Of a stretch of DNA of 64,000 nt, positions 10,765 to 57,169 are shown piece by piece. This DNA comes from Megalobrama amblycephala (taxonomy: Eukaryota; Chordata; Actinopteri; Cypriniformes; Xenocyprididae). Location: contig NC_063049.1 in the NCBI RefSeq assembly GCF_018812025.1, positions 8,773,537-8,837,536 of the forward strand, read 5' to 3'. Positions within the stretch are counted from its first letter, which is position 1; each line of letters opens with the position of its first letter. The notes beneath the pieces are model-generated. The model made no database searches, was not told the DNA's origin, and was given only the letters and a program-made list of their open reading frames with translations. The position numbers and the translations under genes are program-made.

Positions 10765-12200
10765 GCCCAAAGTTTGACAAGGGCCAAATTGTGATGGCTA
10801 GACGACTGGGTCAGAGCATCTCCAAAACTGCAGCTCTTGTGGGGTGTTCCCGGTCTGCAGTGGTCAGTATCTATCAAAAGTGCTCCAAGGAAGGAACAGT
10901 GGTGAACCGGAGACAGGGTCATGGGCGGCCGAGGTTCATTGATGCACGTGGGAAGCGAAGGCTGGTCCGTGTGGTCCGATCCAACAGACGAGCTCCTGTA
11001 GCTCAAATTGCTCAAGAAGTTAAAGCTGGTTCTGATAGAAAGGTGTCAGAATACACAGTATAGATTTGTGCTGATATTCGGTAATGCGATATATGACGAT
11101 AATGAATATGCATGATATTGTCATCGTGGGCACTTCAAAATACCGTAAATAATAATTTATTACCAATTATTCACATTTTTATAATGCATTTAAGAATACT
11201 TTCCCCATCAACCATATAAATTGCACAACACCGCTGTATTCTGCGTCAAAGGGACACACACTCAGATGTAAACAAGCCCAATGTGTACGAGAAGCACATG
11301 GCGGAACGAGTGGAGACGCGCTGAATGAAAGTGGACGTTCACTCTCTGACAGCAGAGGGTGATGATGGAACAGCAGAAATGCAGCGGTTACCCCAGAAAC
11401 CCCGCTAACAAAGTTTTTAAAATGCTACAAACAGCCATTCATTTTTTTGTAATCTCAATGTTGTTCATCTCAGCACCAAATACTTAATCTTAGTTAATGC
11501 ATTAAATAATGAGACCTTATTGTAAAGTGTTACCTGATGTTCTTTATAGCCAAATTCTTTTGCATTTTAATCTGTTTGAAAATTTTACTTTATATATTTT
11601 TTGTACATTGTATTATTGTATTTAAACATTCAGAGTTATTTTTGTTTTCAATATCGTGATAATACCGTATACCGTGATAAAAGCTTATGCAATTAATTGC
11701 AACATGAAAATATGATACTGTCACATGCCTAACACAGTGCATCACAGTTTGTTGCGTATGGAGCTGCATAGCCTCAGACCAGTCAGGGTGCCCATGCTGA
11801 CCCCTGTCCACCGCCGAAAGAGCCAACAGTGGACATGTGAGCATCAGAACTGGACCACGGAGCAATGGAAGAAGGTGTCCTGGTCTGATGAATCACATCT
11901 TCTTTTACATCACGTGGATGGCCGGGTGCGTGTGCGTCACTTACCTGGGGAACACATGGCATCAGGATGCACTATGGGAAGAAGGCAAGCCGGCGGAGGC
12001 AGTGTGATGCTTTGGACAATGTTCTGCTGGGAAACCTTGGATCCTGCCATCCATGTGGATGTTACTTTGACACGTAACACCTACCATTGTTGCAGACCAT
12101 GTACAGCCTTTCATGGAAACGGTATTCCCTGGTGGCTGTGGCCTCTTTCAGCAGGAAAGCAAAGCAAAAATGGTTCAGGAATGATTTGAGGAACACAACG
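10765..12200 (+). pseudogene. Tc1-like transposase copy split by a hAT-like insertion
   Basis: The N-terminal part ('[20 protein letters not shown]', '[20 protein letters not shown]') runs to '[10 protein letters not shown]' near 11060. The reading frame resumes at about 11733 with '[20 protein letters not shown]', then 'NWTTEQWKKVSWSDESHLLL' and 'GGGSVMLWTMFCWETLDPAI'. Joining across the insert keeps the frame, so the element was intact here when it was hit. Both outer ends are lost and later frameshifts occur around 12100-12180. It is the same family as the copy at 21.96-23.03 kb. Confidence 0.9.
11061..11731. mobile_element. hAT-like non-autonomous element nested in Tc1 copy
   Basis: Starts TAGATTTGTGCTGATAT and ends ATACTGTCACATGCCTA, which are imperfect terminal inverted repeats. 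It is flanked by ACACAGTA at 11053-11060 and ACACAGTG at 11732-11739, an 8-bp target duplication with one mismatch, as expected for hAT. The right portion has the 'taccgtataccgtgataaaa' motif of this family. No transposase ORF. Confidence 0.8.
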
Positions 12201-21961: not shown

Positions 21962-23032
21962 TGTGTTAGAAGCAGGAAAAATGGGCGAGCGTAAGGATTT
22001 GAGCGAGTTTGACATGGGCCAAATTGTGATGGCTAGACGACTGTGTCAGAACATCTCCAAAACTGCAGCTCTTGTGGGGTGTTCCCGGTCTGCAGTGGTC
22101 AGTATCTATCAAAAGTGCTCCAAGGAAGGAACAGTGGTGAACTGGCGACAGGGTCATTGGCGGCCGAGGCTCACTGATGCACGTGGGGAGCGAAGGCTGG
22201 CCCGTGTGGTCCGATCCAACAGACGAGCTGCTGTAGCTCAAACTGCTCAAGAAGTTAATGCTGGTTCTGATAGAAAGGTGTCAGAATACACAGTGCATCA
22301 GTTTGTTGCGTATGGAGCTGCATAGCTGCAGACCAGTCAGGGTGCCCATGCTGACCCCTGTCCACCACCAAAAGAGCCAACAGTGGACACGTGAGCATCA
22401 GAACTGGACCACGGAGCAATGGAAGAAGGTGTCCTGGTCTGATGAATCATGTTTTCTTTTACATCACGTGGATGGCCGGGTGCGTCACTTACCTGGGGAA
22501 CACATGGCACCAGGATGCACTATGGGAAGAAGGCGAGCCGGCAGAGGCAGTGTGATGCTTTGGCCAATGTTCTGCAGGGAAACCTTGAGTCCTGCCATCC
22601 ATGTGGATGTTACTTTGACACGTATCACCTACCTCAGCATTGTTGCAGACCATGTACACCCTTTCATGGAAACGGTGTTCCCTGGTGTCTGTGGCCTCTT
22701 TCAGCAGGATAATGCTCCTGCCACAAAGCAGAAATGGTTCAGGAATGGTTTGAGGAACACAACAACGAGTTTGAGGTGTTGACTTGGCCTCCAAATTCCC
22801 CAGATCTCAATCCAATCGAGCATCTGTGAGATGTGCTGAACAAAGTCTGATCCATGGAGGATCCACCTCGCAACTTACAGGACTTAAAGGATCTAACATC
22901 TTGGTGCAGATACCACAAAACACCTTCAGGGGTCTAGAGGAGTCCATGCCTCGACGGGTCAGGGCTGATTTGGCAGCAAAAGAGGGACCAACACAATATA
23001 AGGTGGTCATAATGTTATGCCTGATCTGTGTA
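21962..23032 (+). pseudogene. Tc1-like transposase, broken copy
   Basis: Opens with '[20 protein letters not shown]', followed by the HTH region to '[10 protein letters not shown]'. A 2-bp loss near 22298 shifts frame (compare the 10.8-12.2 kb copy, which reads 'VHHSLLRM' there). The DDE region follows: 'NWTTEQWKKVSWSDESCFLL' and 'GLFQQDNAP'. A short deletion follows, then '[12 protein letters not shown]' ends at a TGA where Trp is expected. The tail at 22850-23000 encodes 'RNLQDLKD' and 'ESMPRRVRADLAAKEGPTQY' in other frames. The right end includes 'cataatgttatgcctgatct'. Not functional. Confidence 0.9.
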
Positions 23033-24933: not shown

Positions 24934-24934
24934 A

Positions 24935-24978
24935 ATCAATCAATCAATCAATCAATCAATACACCCATCCATCCATCC

Positions 24979-25063
<85 letters not shown>

Positions 25064-25412
25064 GTCCATTCATCAACCAGCCAACCAATCAATACACCAA
25101 TCAATCCATCCATCCATTCATCAACCAATCAATCAATCAATCAATACACCCATCCATCCACCAACCAATCAATCCATCCATTCACCAACCAACCAATCAA
25201 TTCATCCATCCATCCATCCATCCATCCATCCATCCATCCATCTACCAACCAACCAATCAATCAATCAATACACCCACCCATCCATCCATCCATCAACCAA
25301 CCAATCAATCCATCCATCCATCCATTCATCAACCAATCAATCCATCCATCCATTCATCAACAACCAACCAACCAACCAATCAACACACCAATCCATCCAT
25401 CCATCTACCAAC

Positions 25413-25457
<45 letters not shown>

Positions 25458-38627: not shown

Positions 38628-39530
38628 GCTGCGTCCGAAATCACATACTGTATGGTAGGTGCTACATTTGGTTTGGCACTTACTTTGCAACCCTACACAC
38701 ACTTTGGCAATAGATTCGCCATTGTCTAGTAATTTTTTTTTGTTTACTTGCCAGACTGATATACTATTTTATACACACACACACAAAGTTGTCAAAAGTA
38801 CTGACTTTGGAACCAGTCGGTACTAAAATTTTTAAAAAATGTGATGCTTTGAGTGATGTTGAGCGGATTCATAAACCCCTCTGATTGGCCTTTGTGTTCA
38901 CGCGCTCAACAGATATGTCTGTGATTGGCTACAATGATCAATGCACGAGAGAGTTTGAAAGCACGCAGAAGTGTTTGAATTTGAAAGCATGCTTTCAAAT
39001 GCGCCTGTGTGTATCAGTGTAAGCGCTCGGTGAATGTTTTTGAATCGTCGATCATTGTAGCCAATCACAGACATATCTGTTGAGCGCTTGAACACAATGG
39101 CCAATCAAAGGTGCAAAATTGCTCAAAGCATCACATTTTTAAAATGACTTTGTACCGAAGTCAGTACTTTTGACAACTCAAAATTCATGTAAAATGGCAC
39201 ACCTATTTATTATTATTTTTTTTTTTTATATATCTGAACGTACACTCTTAACATCAGTCAATCAAGCATTATATTACATTATGATAATCAAGCACTATTT
39301 ATTGATGGAACTTAAACTTGTCAACCATGTATGAATGCATATTTGTCATTTTAACGTAGGACTGGTGTTGGTGCTTAAGATATTGTTGCTAATTCAGTGT
39401 TTCTGTAAATAATAGATAATAGTAATTAGATCCAGGTACTGTTTTTCAAATACCTACTATGTATATGGACACACTACTCTGTTGGCGCCTACTGTATAGT
39501 ATGGAAGTAGGCATGTTCGGACGCAGCGAC
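38628..39530. mobile_element. MITE in the hnrnpa3 3' UTR intron
   Basis: 'gctgcgtccgaaatcacata' at the left is matched by 'tgttcggacgcagc' at the right, and 'tactgtatggtaggtg' by 'gcctactgtatagtat'. The same family occurs at about 53.2-53.56 kb. The palindrome at 38787-39178 is nested inside. Confidence 0.7.
38787..39178. mobile_element. Nested palindrome carrying the 40-bp CCAAT unit
   Basis: Perfect 21-bp terminal inverted repeats (AGTTGTCAAAAGTACTGAC at the left tip). Each arm contains one 40-bp segment bounded by GCCAATCA direct repeats: right arm GCCAATCA at 39060-39067 and 39100-39107, with 'gacatatctgttgagcgctt' between. This is the unexpanded relative of the tandem array at 54056-56100. 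Confidence 0.85.
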
Positions 39531-47873: not shown

Positions 47874-49097
47874 CTAGTTATTCTTAACGAGAGTCTTTTT
47901 AAGGCGAGGAACGAGGAAAACGGTGCCGTCCGCAGTGTGCTGAAGGGAGTATTCGTTGGGTGAGAAGGGCTTGCCCTGCTCGTCTCGAAGCATACCGAAG
48001 ACTTCTTGGTACAGGGTACTCAACTGCTGTTTCATCTCTCTCAGACTGGTGCTACGTTCGCTCTTCTCCTTCTTCAGTCGCTCCTTCTCCTCCTTCAGCG
48101 AGTCCAGCTCGTACTCCAGGCCCACGATGTTCTCCAGCTTCCGCTTGCGGCAGTTCTGCGCAGCGACCTTGTTCTTGCCCCGACGGCGGATGTCTCTGAC
48201 GAGGGCGAGCTGGGCCTCGTTGAGCTGGTGTTTGGACATCATCTCGTTGAAGTCATCCACAGGCAGATTGATGATCATGTCCACGGTAAACGGGATCTGC
48301 AAGGCTTTTGCTCTCTGTTCATCACGGGAGAGCCGGGCCTCGGAGCGTTTCTTCTGCTTGTCTTTGGTGAAGGGAGGTTTGGAGTAGCCACTGGCTTCCA
48401 CCGGCTCTGTCTTTGGGTTCTTTCCTTTCATCTCCTGCTGCTCTGCGGAGGATTTATCTGAGAGAGATGTCTGAGCTCCGTCATTAAGGTAAACCAGCGG
48501 GAATATCTCGGTATAATCGGACTCCGTGCCTCCCGGACTACCGTCCATCTCTTCCGAGTCAGAGTCGCTAAAACCGAATGATCCATCTCCGTTCAAGGAC
48601 TTCCCCGGAGAGCTCATGTGAGGACTGGAGTCTAGCGACAAGCCAGAATCAGAATCTGGGAATTCCACAATGGGTTCTGGTTTTCCTGAGCTGAAGTTTC
48701 CAGGTGAGAAGCTTTGCAGATCCATGGGGTTTACAGGAGAATCGCTGGCAGTCTCGGCCAGTTGGCTGACCATATTTCCTCCGTCGGATGTGAGAGGGCC
48801 ACTGTTCACTTTTGCCTCCATCTCAGGATAAAACAGCTCATTAAATTCTTCAGGTCTGAACTCGGCTCCCACATCTGGGACGTTCAGACTCATCTGGCTG
48901 AGGTTGGGCGACACCATATTGTTGAAGGATCCGTCATAGGTGTTGATGTATTCAGGAGGACACACCTCTGTCTGGACGGACGAGAGATGGTCCATCCCAG
49001 GCAGATATTGACTGTAGCTTGGGTTCTGTGCTTCTCCGGAAGGTTTCATAAATCCATCCATATTCAATGTCTCCTGCATCTGCATGTTGAGGCACTG
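47874..49097 (-). CDS. nfe2l2a: nfe2l2 last coding exon (Neh6, Neh1, Neh3)
   Basis: Encodes [20 protein letters not shown] to the stop TAG (47874-47876). Contains [18 protein letters not shown] (Neh6 phosphodegron, human DSDSGIS), '[17 protein letters not shown]' and '[19 protein letters not shown]' (CNC), the bZIP, and the C-terminal '[20 protein letters not shown]' (Neh3). The acceptor is a TAGCAG tandem, so the first Gln may be spliced out. Antisense ORFs across it are shadows. Confidence 0.97.
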   Translation of the reverse strand, partial: QCLNMQMQETLNMDGFMKPSGEAQNPSYSQYLPGMDHLSSVQTEVCPPEYINTYDGSFNNMVSPNLSQMSLNVPDVGAEFRPEEFNELFYPEMEAKVNSGPLTSDGGNMVSQLAETASDSPVNPMDLQSFSPGNFSSGKPEPIVEFPDSDSGLSLDSSPHMSSPGKSLNGDGSFGFSDSDSEEMDGSPGGTESDYTEIFPLVYLNDGAQTSLSDKSSAEQQEMKGKNPKTEPVEASGYSKPPFTKDKQKKRSEARLSRDEQRAKALQIPFTVDMIINLPVDDFNEMMSKHQLNEAQLALVRDIRRRGKNKVAAQNCRKRKLENIVGLEYELDSLKEEKERLKKEKSERSTSLREMKQQLSTLYQEVFGMLRDEQGKPFSPNEYSLQHTADGTVFLVPRLKKTLVKNN

Positions 49098-52000
49098 CTA
49101 AAAATACAAAAGAGCAGCGTATGAACACCATAATCCAACGTGAAGGCTCATAGGAGACAAACGGGGGTTACAGTATGAGTTGGGATCAGAGAATTGTTAC
49201 ACTCTTTCACATTGTCTAGTAAGTTGGCAAAGTTCCAGTTGCTTGAACTTTGAGTGTTTCTACGCTTGACCTGCTCAGTAACGTTGTAGCCGGATGCTTC
49301 ACTCTGTAGAATTCAACGTGTTGGGGAATGTTGATGTGAGTCATATAAAAGGACGTAAAAGGGATAGTTCACCCAAAAATGAAAATTATCCCATGATTTA
49401 CTCATCCTCAAGCCATCCTAGGTGTATATGCCTTTCTTCTTTCAGACGAACACAATCGGAGTTAAAAAATATCCTGCCTCTTCCAAGCTTTATAATGGGA
49501 GTGAATGGTACCCTAGATTTTGAAGCCTAAAAAAGTGCATCCATCCATCATAAAAGAAATATATACAGCTCCAGGGGGAAGCGTTTGTTTTTGCAAGCAA
49601 AATATCCATATTTAAAACATTATAGACGAATAACTGGCTTCTGGTAATGTCTGTACAGGCGTTCACGAGAATCGAGTTCCGGCGTATGACACAGGATGTA
49701 GGAGTAGCGTAAGCTTAGGTGAGAGTAGATGCCTCTAGGGCTTCAAAATCTCGGTTACTGTTCACTCCCTCTATAAAGCTCGGGAGAGCCAGGATATTTT
49801 TTAATATAACTCTGATTGTGTTTGTCTGAAAGAAGAGTCATATACACCTAGGATGGCTTAAGGGTGAGTAAACCATGGGATAATTGTCTTTTTGGGTGAA
49901 CTATCCCTTTAAATTGAAACTTTTTTTCCCCCCCAGTTATGAGCTATCCGGTGTATTTTGGTGTACAACTGGATAAGTTCAAACATAAATGAAGTATACA
50001 TCCCAAGCTGTGTGTCAAACCACAGCGTGAGCTCAGAGAGGGTCATTTGGTTGCTGCTCAGCAACAGGGTTGTTTGTGCCTTTCTAAACCACAGGTGATA
50101 TAAACCAGAGTACACAAAGAAGTACCTCACAGCCTCTCTCTCAAAATGAGGATGAAGGGATAATTCACCAAAAAATAAAAATCATTTACTCACCCTCATA
50201 TCATTCCAATAAGACTTTCGTTCATCCCCGAAAACCAAATGAAGATATATATTTTTTTTTTTACCTGAGATTTCTGTCTCTTCACTGAAAGTTGATGTAA
50301 CCAAAATTTTTCAAAAAGTCTATAAAGACATTGTAAAAGTGTGAGCATGGTTGAGCATATTTGATGTGCTCTGTGTATGTGCATTGATCAAGGTTTAGCC
50401 TAAAATTAAATCTGTTCATCATTAGTGTCAAACTTTTGGTGGAAGGAACTTTAAATCGAGGAGGGAAAGAAATCTCTCAGGTTTCATTAAAAATATATTT
50501 GTGTTTCGAAGATGAACCAAAGTTTTGAGTTTTACGACATGAGGATGAGTAAATGATGACAGAATTTTCATTATGTGGTGAATTATCCCTTTCATGTTGC
50601 ACAATAAGGTTTTTATATAAGTTGTTCTAAGGTGTTTATAGAGCTGGTGGCATCTTATCTGACCAGGGTCCAAAAATAACACTATAAGCACCAAATGCAA
50701 ATATAAGCGAACATTTAGTGACTTGCTATGCAAAGACGTACCAACTATTTACTAATACTATTTACTTTATATTTTCCAAGTTAATTTTGTCATGTATGGT
50801 GAGGTCTGGTTTAAGGTTCATACCTGCAACTCTGGGAGTGAGAGCAACTCCATCCAGGCTTGATCCAGAGAGCCTGGCTGCAAAGGATTCTGGGCGAAGG
50901 CTGGGATGTCTGCGGGCATCATAAGATCTGTGGTAGGTGGAACGGAAACATCCAGGCAAGGTGGAGCTGACTGTACAGACCACAGAGAAGAGAGACAATT
51001 AGACTGAAGTGCAGAGACATGTATAGGTGTTGTGTTGCCATGAGGTGTTATATGGGCGATATATATATCCTATAATTACCTCAGCTGGCTCATCTAGTGG
51101 AAAAGTCTCAGCCAGGAGCTGCATGCATTCATCGAATGACAGGGCATCACCTTCTTGTGCTGCGAAAGCCCCATTCTGCAGGTACACAGTCAAATATATC
51201 CCAATAAAACCACTGTATCTACAGTACACACACCGCAGGAGATGTACAAGTAAATGCAGATTCTTTGACTGGATTAGTTCTCTAAACTTTGAGTTACAAT
51301 TATTAACAAGGAACATCTATTATCTCTGGTTACTGGTAAAGTGGAAGTGTTCATTGTGTAGATGTGGATGCATTAATTCAAGGCTTAATCATTGGTAATA
51401 CTGTTCGATCGATGTTACGATGTGATGTGGATTCTGAATCACTTTTGTTGAAAACATTGAATACAAAACTGAAATGTAATGTCATCAACATACAACAATG
51501 TACCCAGAGTTAATGCTGAAACAATATTTCAACTACACTTCAGTGGAACATCATCAAATTCCTGACCATTTCAAAATTTGGGGGGAAAAATCGTTTAAAA
51601 TAAAAATGACATTTGTCCAGCAGTTGAGTCACTTTTTTGTTTTATTATTTAATGGTTTAACACAATCAATGACAAAAAGATACAGAAGATCATTCTTTAA
51701 AAAAAAAAGAGTAAAAGTGGCACAAAAATGACAAAAACACTATAAACTTTAAAAATATAAATAGTTTCAGAAGTCTGATGTCATTATAACTACAGGTGTT
51801 CCAACGGTTCGGGTTTTAAAAATCTGGCTTACATCAGACTACTGCCTCTTCCTTTGGCTTCTCTGAAATCTGAAAAAGAAAGCATGACGTTACTTAAGAA
51901 CAAGTCAATTCAGCTGTCAAACATACTGTCAACATTCACTTTTTTATATCGCTATTTAAATCCATTAAAGCGATAGTTCACCCAAAAATGAAAATTTGAT

Positions 52001-55000
52001 GTTTATCTGCTTACCCCCAGGGCATCCAAGATGGTGACTTTGTTTCTTCAGTAGAACACAAAGAGTACAAAAAAACATGCACAGACAAATCCAAATTAAA
52101 CCTTGCGGTTCATGACGACACATTGATGTCCTAAGACACAAAACGATTGGTTTGTGCAAGAAACCGAACAGTATTTATATAATTTTTTACCTCTAAAACA
52201 CCTCTATGTTCAACTGCCCACCACATCCGGCTAGTGAGGTCAGAAAACACGTTCTGATGATGGAAGTGATCTCTCACGCTTTGCTTCAATGAGTGCGAGA
52301 GATCACTTCCGTTGTTAGAGCGCGTTCAGACCTCACACACCAGTTGCTCAAGGCAGTTGGACATAGAGGTGTTTTAGAGGCAAAAAATTATATAAATACT
52401 GTTCGGTTTCTTGCACAAACCGATCGTTTCGTGTCTTAGGACATCAATGTGCAGTCACGAGCCGCAGGGTTTAATTTGGATTTGTCTATGCATGTTTTTT
52501 TGACTCTTATAGATGGAGTTCCCATTGACATGCATTATACGACTGACAGACGGGCAACGGTTGGAGTTAAAAATCATAATTTGTGTTCTACTGAAGAAAC
52601 AAAGTCACCTACATCTTGGATGCCCTGGGGGTAAGCAGATAAACATCAAATTTTCATTTTTGGGTGAACTATCGCTTTAATGCTTCAATATTAATGCAGT
52701 TTCTACAATTAACATTTACAAATGGAAGCGCTATGACAGGGGTGTCCGATCATTCCAGCCCAGATCTCCAGCCCTAATTAAACACACCTGAAGCAGCTAA
52801 TCAAGGTCATTAGGATCAATGAAAACTTCCAGGCAGGTGTGTTGCAGCTAAACTCTGCGTGAAGAGGGATAAACACATCTGAGCTTAAGGATGGGACGGA
52901 AACATTAGTAAAAGAAATCCATGAAACTGCATAGTATTCAAGTTTTTAAAGTTCTTGTAGAATAAAACAGCTTAGACTTTTCCATACATTCTTCACATTT
53001 AATAGTGATTCAGGAAAATGAATGATTACCTGATGAAGCAGGAGAGGGTCCGAGGTCAGGTGATTGTGTTGCCGACTACAACTCAGTGTATAATCAAAGT
53101 CAGCATTATCAGGAGGGCACTTCTCCTTCACTCCTACTAAAGGCAAGAACGCAAGGTGCTGTGCAAGCATAGAGTAACTGCTGTAAGACATGAGTCTGCG
53201 TCTGAAATCACACTGAGTAGGTACTTCACGACCATTAAAAAGGCACATTCTATATAGAATGTGTGTAGTATCAATGAAATTCTGACGTGCTTCATCCACC
53301 AGGTTGTCAGTGTCATGTGACCAACGGCGTCAGTTGCATCGCTTCACTGCAATTCATAAATCCTCTCCCGTGGCCTCATGGGATAGTAAAGTGTCCAGCA
53401 AATGCACACCTCAGAATTTCGCTGGAATTAGTAGGTCATCCGGGGACTTTTCGCCTACTGTTTTTCGAATACTATGTATTTGGACATACTACTCTGTTGG
53501 CATACTGTTTACCGCATATTATATAGTAGGGAAGTATTTGATTTCAGATGCAAATTAATGACACGTGCCTAATAACAGTCAGTAACGATACAAACCAAAC
53601 ACAAAAAAAACAAGCACGAAAAACAAAATAGAGAAATAATAAAGTAGATGCACCATTGTTTGAAATTGTGCCAGAGAAGTGGTGTAAATATGTCAGGTAG
53701 TTCAATAAACAAGACGGATGCACCAGTGTTTTCTGTCTAATGAGGAAGCATCAGTTAGACTACTGAGAAGTGCACATGCAGAACCAAATTGGGTGTTTCT
53801 TAGGAGCCGTTTACATGACGGCATTTTCAACTGTGTTTTGGGGGCCTGAAATGCAAACTTTTGAAAAAATGGTTTCAAAATGCAAGTTTTTGAAAGCGAT
53901 ACTGTTATTGTCTCCATGTAAACAACAAAAACATGAATTTGTGAACACAGTGACGTCATGTGCATGAGTATTACGTGTTCAGTCTATAGGCGCGTAGTGT
54001 TTCTTTATAAAGTGACATCTCTACTGGCCTGGCAGCAAAATGCAGTGTTTTTTTGTCAATCAGAGACATATATGTTGAGGGCGTGAACACGATGGCCAAT
54101 CAGAGACATATATGTTGAGCGTGTGAACACAATGGCCAATCAGAGACATATATGTTGAGCGTGTGAACACAATGGCCAATCAGAGACATATATGTTGAGC
54201 GTGTGAACACAATGGCCAATCAGAGACATATATGTTGGGGGCGTGAACACAGGGGCCAATCAGAGACATATATGTTGAGGGCGTGAACACAGGGGCCAAT
54301 CAGAGACATATATGTTGAGGGCGTGAACACAGGGGCCAATCAGAGACATATATGTTGAGCGTGTGAACACATTGGCCAATCAGAGACATATATGTTGAGC
54401 ATGTGAACACATTGGCCAATCAGAGACATATATGTTGAGGGCGTGAACCCATTGGCCAATCAGAGACATACATGTTGAGGGCGTGAACCCGGTGGCCAAT
54501 CAGAGACATATATGTTGAGGGCGTGAACCCAGTGGCCAATCAGAGACATATATGTTGAACGAACGTGTGAACACAATGGCCAATCAGAGACATATATGTT
54601 GAGCGCGTGAACACAATGGCCAATCAGAGACATATATGTTGAGGGCGTGAACACAATGGCCAATCAGAGACATATATGTTGAACGAACGTGTGAACACAA
54701 TGGCCAAACAGAGACATATATGTTGAACGCGTGAACCCAGTGGCCAATCAGAGACATATATGTTGAACGAACGTGTGAACACAATGGCCAATCAGAGACA
54801 TATATGTTGAGCGCGTGAACACAATGGCCAATCAGAGACATATATGTTGAGGGCGTGAACACAATGGCCAATCAGAGACATATATGTTGAACGAACGTGT
54901 GAACACAATGGCCAAACAGAGACATATATGTTGAACGCGTGAACACAATGGCCAATCAGAGACATATATGTTGAGGGCGTGAACACAATGGCCAATCAGA

Positions 55001-57169
55001 GACATATATGTTGAACGAACGTGTGAACACAATGGCCAATCAGAGACATATATGTTGAACGAACGTGTGAACACAATGGCCAATCAGAGACATATATGTT
55101 GAGCGCGTGAACACAATGGCCAATCAGAGACATATATGTTGAGGGCGTGAACACAATGGCCAATCAGAGACATATATGTTGAACGAACGTGTGAACACAA
55201 TGGCCAATCAGAGACATATATGTTGAGGGTGTGAACCCATTGGCCAATCAGAGACATATATGTTGAGGGTGTGAACACAGTGGCCAATCAGAGAAATATA
55301 TGTTGAGCGTGTGAACACAATGGCCAATCAGAGACATATATGTTGAGGGTGTGAACCCATTGGCCAATCAGAGACATATATGTTGAGGGCGTGAACACAG
55401 TGGCCAGAGAAATATATGTTGAGCGTGTGAACACAATGGCCAATCAGAGACATATATGTTGAGCGCGTGAACACAATGGCCAATCAGAGACATATATGTT
55501 GAGGGTGTGAACCCATTGGCCAATCAGAGACATATATGTTGAACGTGTGAACACAATGGCCAATCAGAGACATAAATGTTGAGCGCTTGAACACAATGGC
55601 CAATCAGAGACATATATGTTGAGGGCATGAACCCAGTGGCCAATCAGAGACATATATGTTGAGCGCGTGAACACAATGGCCAATCAGAGACATATATGTT
55701 GAGCGTGTGAACACAATGGCCAATCAGAGACATATATGTTGAGGGCGTGAACCCAGTGGCCAATCAGAGACATATATGTTGAGCGCGTGAACACAATGGC
55801 CAATCAGAGACATATATGTTGAGCATGTGAACACAATGTCAATCAGAGACATATATGTTGACATATATGTTGAGCGCGTGAACACAATGGCCAATCAGAG
55901 ACATATATGTTGAGCGCGTGAACACAATGGCCAATCAGAGAAATATATGTTGAGCGTGTGAACACAATGGCCAATCAGAGACATATATGTTGAGGGCGTG
56001 AACCCAGTGGCCAATCAGAGACACATATGTTGAACGTGTGAACACAATGGCCAATCAGAGACATATAAGTTGAGCGTGTGAACACAATGACCAATCAGAG
56101 GTGTTTAAGAATCTGCTCAACAGCACTCAAAATGCTAGAGGGAAATGCTGGTATTGTCACATTTTAAAATTTCAGTATTGACTTGGTACCGAAGTCGGTA
56201 GGTTTGACAACCCTAGTCCACGCCAAAGAACGATAACATTCTGTTTATTATAACTGTCGTCTGCCACTTTAAATGCTTGAGTTCTTTAATGTCAGGTGGA
56301 TTCTTATTGGCTGTCAATGTTTTTATCATTCATCAGCTGGAAAAAAAAAAACATTCTGAAAGTAATTCCATCAATATTGTTCCTCTGTGCCGTCATTGTT
56401 ATAGTTGTGGTGTGGACTTTTCAGACTTTTTTCATTATTCTCATAGAATCAGAATGATTTTTAAAATGTTATAGTTATCATCACTGGTGTGAACGAGCCT
56501 TTAGCCGGAAAAATAGGCAGTTTGCTCCATAAATTAATGCCAAGGTTATGAAAGGAAAACTCTTCCACTTCGTACAAGATTGAAATCACGTAGCACATCT
56601 GCGAAACACAAGTTTGCCTAACATCCTCAGAGAAAAGTAGGTCTTTAGAGTCCTATCCATGTCATGTTGCGATTGTTTGTGAGTGTATTTGCTTTCCATT
56701 TCGTAGAACTGACTTTACGCAGAAGCCTTACCTCCAGAGTTCCATTAATTATACCATAGTGGCAGTTACCAAGCAACTAGGCAGCTGCACCCTGTAATAT
56801 GAGGGGAGGGTGAGGCCTGTTGAGCACCTATGTGTGTGTGTGTGTGTGTGTGTGTGTCTATGATAGATCACACGAGATGGATTTGTGCATGCGTACCTGT
56901 GCGATTTCTCCATTTGTTGTGTTGGTCTGCGTCAGCGCGCCGCTGGCCGGAAGGCTTCGAGGCACAAACTCTCCGGTCTCCTCGTCCAGCTGGAGTTGTG
57001 CGAGTAAAGCTTTCTCCTGCTCCCGCAAATGCTGCTGCCGCTTCTCCTCCTCCTGCTCACGCTGGCGACGCAACTCCACCTCCTTCTGTCTGTAGCTGAA
57101 ATCAAACACTTCCCTCCCCGCACCCAGGTCCACGTCCTGCCTCCACAGGATATCTATCAGCTCCATATC
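47874..57169 (-). CDS. nfe2l2a: Nfe2l2/Nrf2 transcription factor, coding exons 2-5 (5'-partial)
   Basis: CNC-bZIP activator of antioxidant and detoxification genes. It is held in the cytoplasm and degraded via Keap1, and on stress pairs with small Maf at antioxidant response elements. Exons, 5' to 3' on -: 57169-56897, 51175-51080, 50970-50824, 49097-47874, 579 visible residues. Neh2 has DLG (visible residues 14-16) and ETGE (64-67). Neh4 is [17 protein letters not shown]. Neh5 is [18 protein letters not shown]. Neh6 has the beta-TrCP site [12 protein letters not shown]. Neh1 has basic region [20 protein letters not shown] and a leucine zipper. Neh3 ends VFLVPRLKK. Exon 1 (about 10-20 codons in relatives) is not found and probably lies beyond 64,000. 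All visible junctions are phase 0. Closest by recall to zebrafish nfe2l2a; the 'a' suffix is an inference. Transcribed toward hnrnpa3. Confidence 0.95.
49356..49912. mobile_element. Palindromic MITE in nfe2l2 intron 4
   Basis: 'aaaagggatagttcacccaa' at the left, 'tgggtgaactatcccttt' at the right. The arms pair ('agccatcctaggtgtatatg' with 'catatacacctaggatggct'). Confidence 0.85.
50155..50592. mobile_element. Second MITE of the same family in nfe2l2 intron 4
   Basis: 'aagggataattcaccaaaaa' at the left, 'tggtgaattatcccttt' at the right, with inner pairing ('gactttcgttcatcc' with 'gatgaaccaaagttt'). Older than its neighbour by mismatches. Confidence 0.75.
50824..50970 (-). CDS. nfe2l2a: nfe2l2 coding exon 4 (Neh5)
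   Basis: 147 nt, phase 0. Encodes [20 protein letters not shown] through [14 protein letters not shown]. Acceptor 'ctgtacag', donor GTATGA. Holds most of Neh5. Confidence 0.95.
51080..51175 (-). CDS. nfe2l2a: nfe2l2 coding exon 3 (Neh4)
   Basis: 96 nt, phase 0. Encodes [18 protein letters not shown], then [14 protein letters not shown]. Acceptor 'tacctgcag', donor GTAATT. The core matches Neh4 of Nrf2 (YFDDCMQLLAQTFPF in human). Confidence 0.93.
51965..52680. mobile_element. Palindromic MITE with long, nearly perfect arms, nfe2l2 intron 2
   Basis: TTAAAGCGATAGTTCACCC at the left and its exact inverse at the right (52661-52680). Complementarity continues for about 66 bp with almost no mismatch ('cttacccccagggcatccaa' region), and again in the inner arms ('agaaaccgaacagtatttat' with 'ataaatactgttcggtttct'). 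A recent insertion by its low divergence. Confidence 0.9.
52681..53204. other. nfe2l2 intron 2, no feature seen
   Basis: Contains 'cagatctccagccctaatta' and 'aacacacctgaagcagctaa', a dispersed cyprinid repeat motif. The 117-codon - strand ORF at 52946-53299 has no recognised domain. Confidence 0.4.
53205..53555. mobile_element. MITE, 'tgcgtctgaaatcac' family
   Basis: 'gcgtctgaaatcacactgag' at the left, 'tttgatttcagatgc' at the right, and 'actactctgttggcatactg' as in the 3' UTR-intron element of hnrnpa3. Confidence 0.7.
53797..54055. mobile_element. Truncated MITE abutting the tandem array
   Basis: 'ggagccgtttacatgacggc' then 'attttcaactgtg', with 'ccatgtaaacaac' inverted inside, resembles a common fish element whose right end is absent. 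The last recognisable piece, 'aaaatgcagtgtttttttg', runs straight into the array. Confidence 0.5.
54056..56100. repeat. 40-bp minisatellite, about 50 copies, each with a CCAAT box
   Basis: Unit: CAATCAGAGACATATATGTT plus GAGCGTGTGAACACAATGGC. Period 40 bp, with 44-bp variants carrying an extra 'gaac' ('gaacgaacgtgtg'). Each unit has GGCCAATCAG, a good NF-Y-type CCAAT box, and the self-complementary ACATATATGT. Higher-order blocks are visible, e.g. ordered runs of 40/40/44-bp units around 54550-55200. Lies in nfe2l2 intron 2. ORFs on the - strand with 'YMSLIGH' repeats are products of the array. Confidence 0.97.
56101..56215. mobile_element. Right end of the palindromic element that seeded the array
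   Basis: 'gtgtttaagaatctgctcaa' to 'accgaagtcggtaggtttga' and 'caaccctag' corresponds to the right-hand end of the 38787-39178 palindrome ('gtgcaaaattgctcaaagca', 'accgaagtcagtacttttga'). The matching left end is not present before the array. Confidence 0.75.
56216..56829. other. nfe2l2 intron 2, no feature seen
   Basis: Unique A+T-rich sequence without recognised repeats or ORFs. Confidence 0.4.
56830..56858. repeat. (TG)n, i.e. (CA)n on the nfe2l2 sense strand
   Basis: About fourteen units, beginning 38 nt downstream of the nfe2l2 exon 2 splice donor in the sense of the gene. Intronic CA repeats near donors can bind hnRNP L (established for other genes). Confidence 0.92.
56897..57169 (-). 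CDS. nfe2l2a: nfe2l2 coding exon 2 (Neh2, Keap1-binding)
   Basis: 273 nt, phase 0 at both ends. Encodes [20 protein letters not shown], the Lys/Gln/Arg-rich helix between the motifs, then [10 protein letters not shown] through [11 protein letters not shown] is the low-affinity and ETGE the high-affinity Keap1 site. The inter-motif helix has only three lysines by my reading (K28, K42 and K52 of the exon product). Acceptor 'cctctctag', donor GTACGC. Confidence 0.97.

What the first reader, a model, noticed from the sequence alone, without database searches (positions are those of the whole stretch)
54056..56100. About fifty tandem CCAAT boxes in an nfe2l2 intron
Seen: a 40-bp unit (some 44 bp) repeats for about 2 kb, and nearly every unit contains GGCCAATCAG next to the palindrome ACATATATGT. 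Established: NF-Y binds CCAAT with this flanking context. Inference: if accessible, this is a dense regularly spaced NF-Y platform inside a stress-response regulator gene and could act as an enhancer or as a sink for the factor. Copy number is likely variable between individuals or species.
Basis: partly seen in the sequence, partly recalled or inferred. Interest (0 to 1): 0.75.

Follow-up and report, generated by a model that had tools for sequence, protein, structure and literature searches.

The report
Transposon-born CCAAT repeat array, nfe2l2 intron
A 2-kb block of about fifty 40-letter repeats inside a fish stress-response gene appears to have grown from one short segment at the end of a common small transposon, and because that segment is bounded by two CCAAT boxes nearly every repeat carries a good site for the protein NF-Y, although whether the cell uses these sites is untested.

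Summary
Window 54057-56102 is a 50-copy tandem array (40 bp, some 44); 46 of 51 unit starts carry CCAAT. It lies in intron 2 of an nfe2l2 gene on the minus strand.

The array ends in the terminal repeat of a ~400-bp palindromic, hAT-like MITE; another copy is at 38787-39178. In 18 copies read, each of 34 arms found has one 40-bp unit, usually with CCAAT at both edges. By alignment at least nine other loci have more than one unit. I read four: 40, 36, 21 and 7 copies. One, L057, is an intact MITE with a perfect 8-bp target duplication, one unit in its left arm and 21 in its right. Arrays therefore grow inside the MITE arm, repeatedly.

NF-Y binding is plausible: motif and spacing fit, and human LTR12 and the ABO minisatellite are precedents. 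But the CCAAT density follows from the seed unit, and one sister array keeps CCAAT in only 19 of 35 extracted units. Default: a MITE-born minisatellite, function unproven.

The parts
54057..56102 (+). Tandem array: 50 units, mostly 40 bp (7 of 44 bp), and a final partial; CCAAT at 46 of 51 unit starts
54537..55204 (+). Higher-order block, units 13-28: the 44-40-40 trimer J-K-L occurs three times, with variants between, a sign of local amplification
56103..56216 (+). Right terminal inverted repeat of the hAT-like MITE (ends ...GACAACCCTAG); a homologous stretch follows all five arrays read
53828..54052 (+). Part of a different, high-copy MITE-like repeat, cut off at the start of the array; the array element's own left arm and loop are missing
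38787..39178 (.). Second copy of the array's parent MITE: palindromic, two arms with one 40-bp unit each, ~110 bp between the unit-bearing arms
56897..57169 (-). nfe2l2 exon 2 (DLG and ETGE motifs)
51080..51175 (-). nfe2l2 exon 3; intron 2 is therefore 51176-56896 (5,721 bp)
47874..49085 (-). nfe2l2 last exon: ORF with the NRF2 CNC-bZIP region

Best explanation
The array is a minisatellite that grew in place from one 40-bp subterminal unit in an arm of a ~400-bp palindromic, hAT-like MITE. In the MITE the unit is bounded on both sides by nearly the same ~10-bp word, CCAATCANAG, and that direct repeat is the natural register for slippage or unequal exchange, so every added unit brings one more CCAAT box. 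The MITE in nfe2l2 intron 2 lost its left arm and loop; part of another MITE-like repeat now abuts the array; the right terminal repeat is kept. SHOWN: the array, its terminal repeat, the one-unit structure of the family copies read, 8-bp target-site duplications, four other expanded loci, and an intact MITE with a 21-unit arm. INFERRED: slippage or unequal crossing-over as the mechanism; hAT assignment, from duplication length and terminal repeat alone. INFERRED on function: the sites could bind NF-Y if accessible, but the default is a neutral by-product with no selected role in nfe2l2.
For: The right flank of the array matches both arms of the palindromic element at 38787-39178, and the units match inside both arms. 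That element is one of a large family: 40 of 2,631 first-look candidates were scored and all 40 matched, one being the window copy itself. 18 copies read (15 fetched, one in the window, two in a 200-kb sample): 34 arms found, one unit per arm, a few partial; 28 of 34 arms have two exact CCAAT, spaced 40 bp in 20 of those 28. 8-bp flank duplication: of 17 copies tested, 7 were dropped because an end was not found; 7 of the other 10 match at 6 or more of 8 bases, 3 perfectly; mispaired controls mean 2.6, maximum 6. By alignment nine other loci carry more than one unit plus most of the terminal repeat, among 40 scored of 2,591 candidates; the four read have 40.1, 35.8, 21.3 and 7.3 copies. The right flanks of the other four arrays match that of the nfe2l2 array at 75-87% over 105-141 aligned bp. 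L057: ATGCAGAA at 82 and 1327, element 90-1326, one unit in the left arm, array in the right; family copies align to its left arm and loop. 42 of 43 extracted nfe2l2 units have all their best matches in their own array, so this expansion is local.
Against: The nfe2l2 array has no left terminal repeat or loop in 1,057 bp to its left and no convincing target-site duplication (best 6 of 8 bases), so the insertion is not seen here directly; three of the four sister arrays likewise show no left arm in the 196-271 bp held, so only one of five arrays sits in an intact MITE. The window's own MITE copy shows no duplication (3 of 8). No transposase was sought. Slippage and unequal exchange cannot be told apart. 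Family copies were picked with a one-unit query. CCAAT is kept in 46 of 51 units here against 19 of 35 in one sister array, and in the MITE family the two CCAAT boxes rank 4th and 6th of 167 five-column windows for conservation; both could hint at a role for the boxes, though the copies were chosen by similarity and the arms anchored on the unit.
Confidence: 0.82

Rival explanations
1. The array is a working NF-Y platform: stacked NF-Y opens chromatin and acts as an intronic enhancer or alternative promoter of nfe2l2, as LTR12 repeats and the ABO minisatellite do in human cells.
For: RRCCAATSR at 46 + strand places. 40-bp spacing clears the 24-bp minimum and lies next to the 41-bp peak of NF-Y-bound tandem boxes (PMC4982600 passages). 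LTR12 has 5-17 tandem ~41-nt CCAAT repeats bound by NF-Y with enhancer activity (PMC11853044 passages). The human ABO gene has a minisatellite of CBF/NF-Y motifs 4 kb upstream with allele-dependent copy number, four repeats giving more reporter transcription (PMC2988417 passages). CCAAT kept in 46 of 51 units.
Against: No occupancy or accessibility data. Variation in the array gives no sign of selection on CCAAT: 1 of 19 variant types falls in its five of 40 columns, about 2.4 expected by column share. Arrays arise elsewhere in the genome, and one has no exact CCAAT in 16 of 35 extracted units.
Confidence: 0.15
2. The array works as a sink: DNA, or the intronic RNA read through it, titrates NF-Y, as reported for intronic LTR12 U3 transcripts.
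For: The array lies in an intron and would be transcribed with the gene. LTR12 transcripts covering CCAAT repeats are reported to sequester NF-Y (PMC11853044 passages).
Against: About fifty sites are few beside the genome's own: 40 RRCCAATSR per 200 kb extrapolates to some 220,000 in 1.11 Gb. The RNA of the gene strand folds no better than shuffles (z -0.41; one 293-nt stretch tested).
Confidence: 0.04
3. Copies of the unit in the MITE arm serve the transposon: they are extra transposase binding sites, as suggested for the fold-back elements Galileo and Tetris, and the CCAAT word is part of a transposase site.
For: CCAAT boxes are among the most conserved parts of the MITE arm. Extra binding sites in terminal repeats are proposed for Galileo and Tetris (PMC4079207 section 19).
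Against: Copies read in the family survey had one unit per arm, so spread does not need many; but these were picked with a one-unit query. No transposase was sought.
Confidence: 0.2
4. Assembly artefact or wrong copy number.
For: No reads were available.
Against: Units differ from each other in an ordered pattern, the array lies inside a 46.6-Mb contig, and four sister arrays have the same build.
Confidence: 0.05

Closest known systems
Xstir and miDNA4 of Xenopus: tandem arrays that grew from inside MITEs
   Same: A MITE holds one or several copies of a monomer, and arrays expand from it; short direct repeats at the monomer edges are the proposed trigger for miDNA4 (PMC12628747 passages; PMC9659126 passages).
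   Different: miDNA4 is Tc1/mariner; here 8-bp duplications point to hAT. Here the edge repeat contains a CCAAT box. No sequence comparison with them was made.
Tetris (TIR-220) of Drosophila virilis
   Same: Fold-back element with tandem repeats in its terminal inverted repeats that gave rise to longer satellite-like arrays (PMC4079207 abstract and section 19).
   Different: 220-bp units and amplification in heterochromatin; here 40-bp units and an array inside a gene.
ABO-gene CBF/NF-Y minisatellite (human)
   Same: A minisatellite whose repeats carry CBF/NF-Y motifs beside a gene, with variable copy number (PMC2988417 passages).
   Different: Few repeats (1 or 4 in the passages seen), upstream of the gene; NF-Y binding and reporter activity reported there, untested here. 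Its relation to a transposon was not checked.
LTR12 / ERV9 U3 repeats (human)
   Same: Mobile-element-borne tandem repeats of ~41 bp with CCAAT boxes; may lie in introns; 5-17 copies (PMC11853044 passages).
   Different: LTR retroelement, not a DNA transposon; NF-Y binding shown there and not here; the repeats also carry GATA and MZF1 sites, which I did not look for here.
Angel MITE of zebrafish
   Same: Fish MITE whose single strands can pair with themselves (PMC12628747 passage).

Membership tests
hAT-superfamily MITE (the parent element) | 8-bp target-site duplication | tested here: met
   7 of 10 copies with both ends found have at least 6 of 8 bases, mispaired maximum 6; 7 of 17 dropped; window copy itself 3 of 8; perfect in L057
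hAT-superfamily MITE (the parent element) | Terminal inverted repeats, short, high copy number | tested here: met
   Ends mostly YAGNGTTGTCAAAAGTAC, arms ~155 bp, 382-497 bp long in the 10 copies with both ends; 2,631 first-look candidates; copies in 2 of 20 sampled 10-kb pieces
hAT-superfamily MITE (the parent element) | Mobilised by a hAT transposase | not tested
   No autonomous partner was sought
hAT-superfamily MITE (the nfe2l2 array itself) | Both terminal repeats and target-site duplication at this locus | tested here: not met
   Only the right terminal repeat is present; no family match in 1,057 bp to the left; no duplication found. It is a derived, truncated copy
MITE-derived tandem array (Xstir/miDNA4/Tetris kind) | Monomer present as single copy in the MITE and as arrays in derived copies | tested here: met
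   One unit per arm in 34 arms of 18 copies; arrays of 7-50; intact MITE with one expanded arm, L057
LTR12/ERV9 repeat | LTR structure (U3-R-U5) | tested here: not met
   The right flank is a terminal inverted repeat of a palindromic element
Functional NF-Y platform | CCAAT in consensus flanks, spacing compatible with joint binding | tested here: met
   46 RRCCAATSR on +, spacing mostly 40 or 44 bp against a 24-bp minimum; no NF-Y matrix was scored
Functional NF-Y platform | NF-Y occupancy and effect on transcription | not testable with these tools
   No ChIP, ATAC or expression data

The most novel reading that the evidence does not exclude
A hAT-like MITE family with probably thousands of copies spreads ready-made pairs of CCAAT boxes at the ~40-bp spacing that two NF-Y trimers can share, and recurrent growth of the unit between them turns single copies into NF-Y arrays of up to fifty sites. 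One such array sits in nfe2l2 and tunes this stress regulator, with array length as a variable dial: a DNA-transposon parallel of human LTR12 and of the ABO minisatellite.
Probability: 0.12. Interest if true: 0.75.

Novelty: new member of a known kind. Interest (0 to 1): 0.4.

Why it matters
It shows a simple route from a common small transposon to a dense array of one regulatory site: when the edge of a repeat unit is itself a binding site, each added copy adds a site without any selection. If the arrays bind NF-Y, this fish genome holds a natural set of arrays of different length (7 to 50 copies read here) and many single-unit controls, which would make the effect of binding-site number on chromatin directly testable. 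If they do not, it is a caution against reading motif density in satellites as function.

Tried and rejected
Selection on CCAAT inside the array: 19 variant types over 40 columns, 1 in the five CCAAT columns, about 2.4 expected by column share; no evidence (46 of 51 segments used, the five of odd length dropped). Conservation of CCAAT in the MITE family: a first test (p 0.0005) was biased because the local alignments end in CCAAT; repeated with flanks (p 0.0001), still with chosen copies. RNA structure on the gene strand: z -0.41 on one 293-nt stretch. Rfam (gathering threshold) and tRNA hits in the window: none. Other motifs in the array (all consensus words recalled): no TGACNNNGC, AP-1, CRE, CACGTG, TNGCGTG or full NFI palindrome; RCGTG cores 42, GCGTG 33. 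Viral contigs hold no copy of the exact 25-mer, though records near the window's own genome may be left out there. No left terminal repeat or target-site duplication could be found for the nfe2l2 copy. A 40-bp unit drawn from the 200-kb sample carries RRCCAATSR in 41 of 4,980 cases, so the motif in the unit is not trivial, but the unit is MITE sequence and was not drawn at random. Literature: a search for minisatellite + CCAAT + NF-Y + tandem repeat listed two papers; one leads to the ABO minisatellite, the other discusses CCAAT and NF-Y in the dopamine-transporter promoter. A search for MITE + hAT + NF-Y + CCAAT + fish listed none. Searches were read as listings. In these searches I saw no report of this array or of a MITE-born NF-Y array; subscription journals are mostly not held. 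A genome-wide count of all expanded arrays could not be made, and which nfe2l2 paralogue this is was not settled.

Full report
1. What is there. The array is real and as described: 54057-56100 by TRF, period 40, 50.2 copies. My cut gives 51 unit starts, 46 with CCAAT; the five others are TCAAT twice (units 1 and 45), CCAAA twice (17 and 22) and one deletion (34). GGCCAATCAG is found 45 times in the array and twice elsewhere in the window. Seven units are 44 bp long and identical. Between units 13 and 28 the trimer of unit types J-K-L occurs three times with variants between, which points to local amplification. Variation sits mainly in columns 23-37 of the unit: 85 of 690 cells, against 10 of 1,150 in the other 25 columns.

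2. Where it is. The ORF at 47874-49085 on the minus strand matches NRF2 bZIP structures (7x5e, E 2.4e-44) and Pfam bZIP_Maf. A minus-strand exon at 57169-56897 carries the DLG and ETGE motifs with AG/GT borders, and a further exon lies at 51175-51080. The array is thus in intron 2 (5,721 bp), taking up about 36% of it, 0.8 kb from exon 2. Which nfe2l2 paralogue this is was not settled (searches did not complete). That the animal is a cyprinid is recalled from the look of the gene and repeats and comes from no call.

3. Origin. Masking the array and comparing its flanks with the rest of the window showed that the right flank and the units match a second place, 38787-39178, in both orientations (in one arm the flank match is 33 bp only). 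That place is a palindromic element with arm pieces of 62, 45 and 27 bp at 80-95% complementarity. In the 1.11-Gb genome it has many relatives: 2,631 first-look candidates, 40 scored, all 40 matching, the window copy among them. In a 200-kb sample, 2 of 20 pieces of 10 kb hold a copy, which would extrapolate to about ten thousand copies, a very rough figure from two events. I read 15 fetched copies (of the 40 scored), the window copy and the two sampled ones: 34 arms were found (two copies showed one arm only), each with a single 40-bp unit, a few of them partial; 28 of 34 arms have two exact CCAAT boxes, 20 of these 28 spaced exactly 40 bp. These copies were picked with a one-unit query, which favours one-unit copies.

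4. What kind of element. Copies mostly end in YAGNGTTGTCAAAAGTAC. Of 17 copies tested, 10 had both ends found; 7 of these 10 have an 8-bp flanking duplication with at least 6 of 8 bases, three of them perfect, against a mean of 2.6 and a maximum of 6 for mispaired flanks; the window copy has 3 of 8. An 8-bp duplication with such ends is the mark of hAT transposons (family knowledge, recalled). No transposase was sought, so hAT-like is the right word.

5. Recurrent growth. A query of three units plus the terminal repeat (55972-56216) scored 40 of 2,591 candidates. Beside this array, nine loci align from query position 36 or earlier into the terminal repeat (to 222 or beyond), that is with two or more units: C22:18182994, C17:45121683, C16:14335266, C6:37782860, C17:45441929, C17:45763397, C17:46154202, C15:34043887 and C8:9618184. 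I read four of the nine: 40.1, 35.8, 21.3 and 7.3 copies; the other five rest on the alignment alone. The right flanks of the four match that of the nfe2l2 array at 75-87% over 105-141 aligned bp. L057 is the key specimen: duplication ATGCAGAA at 82 and 1327, element 90-1326, a left arm with one unit, the loop ending in GATCATTGTAG, then 21 units, then the right terminal repeat; family copies align to its left arm and loop. So an array can grow within one arm of an intact MITE. In the other four arrays, the nfe2l2 one included, no left arm or loop was found in the 196-1,057 bp held to the left. At nfe2l2 there is instead part of another high-copy MITE-like repeat (53828-54052), cut where the array begins. 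Extracted nfe2l2 units match best within their own array in 42 of 43 cases, against 25 of 36, 20 of 35 and 13 of 21 in the three C17 arrays read and 4 of 6 in C22; that extraction drops units of unusual length. This array therefore expanded on its own, while the C17 arrays seem to share a history.

6. Why nearly every unit has CCAAT. The single unit in the MITE is bounded on both sides by CCAATCANAG. Such a direct repeat is the expected register for slippage or unequal exchange, and each round copies one box. This is inference from structure; similar edge repeats were proposed for miDNA4 of Xenopus (PMC12628747, passages), and unequal crossing-over for Tetris (PMC4079207, section 19).

7. Could it bind NF-Y. 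Motif: RRCCAATSR 46 times on + and 4 on -. Geometry: a published analysis gives contacts from -7 to +17, a minimum of 24 bp between boxes, peaks near 31, 41 and 52 bp in promoters, and 24 and 41 bp in NF-Y-bound distal regions with tandem boxes, which are mostly LTR elements (PMC4982600, passages). 40 bp is close to this. Two human precedents: LTR12, with 5-17 repeats of ~41 nt with NF-Y-bound CCAAT, enhancer activity, and U3 transcripts reported to sequester NF-Y (PMC11853044, passages); and the ABO minisatellite, whose allele-dependent number of CBF/NF-Y motifs goes with reporter transcription, though the same paper notes no data for blood-forming tissue and did not find the four-repeat form with the A1 allele of the family it studied (PMC2988417, passages). 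For a role here: CCAAT is kept in 46 of 51 units, and in the MITE family the boxes are among the best-conserved five-column windows (4th and 6th of 167; permutation 0.0001, but the copies were chosen by similarity, the arms anchored on the unit and the loop columns are poorly alignable). Against: in one extraction CCAAT opens 38 of 43 units here, and 31 of 36, 19 of 35, 19 of 21 and 5 of 6 in the others, so it can be lost; the array itself shows no depletion of changes in CCAAT beyond chance. I hold the neutral by-product as most likely and functional binding with effect on nfe2l2 as a minority reading.

8. Papers. Passages only: PMC11853044, PMC4982600, PMC7793273 (it names NFYA matrix MA0060.1, which I did not have and did not score), PMC12628747, PMC9659126, PMC2988417, PMC2883569. 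Abstract and one section: PMC4079207. Abstract only: PMC2872659 (coral MITEs forming tandem arrays). No paper was read whole.

9. Verdict. A true and tidy observation with an ordinary but instructive cause: a MITE-born minisatellite. It is a new member of a known kind, with the twist that the amplified edge is a CCAAT box.

Noticed in passing
G000 C17:45121683, 45441929, 45763397, 46154202 (L055-L057 read for three of them): Four of the nine other multi-unit loci lie within about 1.03 Mb of one contig, roughly 0.3-0.4 Mb apart, and the three read are closer to each other than to the nfe2l2 array; local duplication or exchange between arrays may be at work.
   Followed up: partly
L056 (C17:45763350-45765150): A 48-bp stretch of the left flank recurs at 94% just beyond the right terminal repeat of the array: more than a simple 8-bp duplication, unexplained.
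   Followed up: no
53828-54052: Part of another very high-copy MITE-like repeat (3,468 first-look candidates) with a CRE palindrome TGACGTCA at 53951.
   Followed up: partly
54057-56102: 42 RCGTG cores (33 GCGTG) occur in the array on one strand, the cores of HIF and AhR sites by recalled consensus, but none in the full TNGCGTG form.
   Followed up: no
L055: The 40-copy sister array has 56 CCAAT words in 2,001 bp because many units read CCCAATGGCCAAT, giving a second box 7 bp away (17 spacings of 7 bp).
   Followed up: no
L017:1735-3950 (just before the window): A minisatellite-like stretch open in more than one frame for up to 396 codons, with a repeated peptide.
   Followed up: no
11725-12189 and 21963-22782: ORFs that look like broken Tc1-type transposase pieces (by eye, recalled).
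   Followed up: no
24934-25456: A 130-copy AATC tetranucleotide array that leaves a 210-codon ORF open.
   Followed up: no
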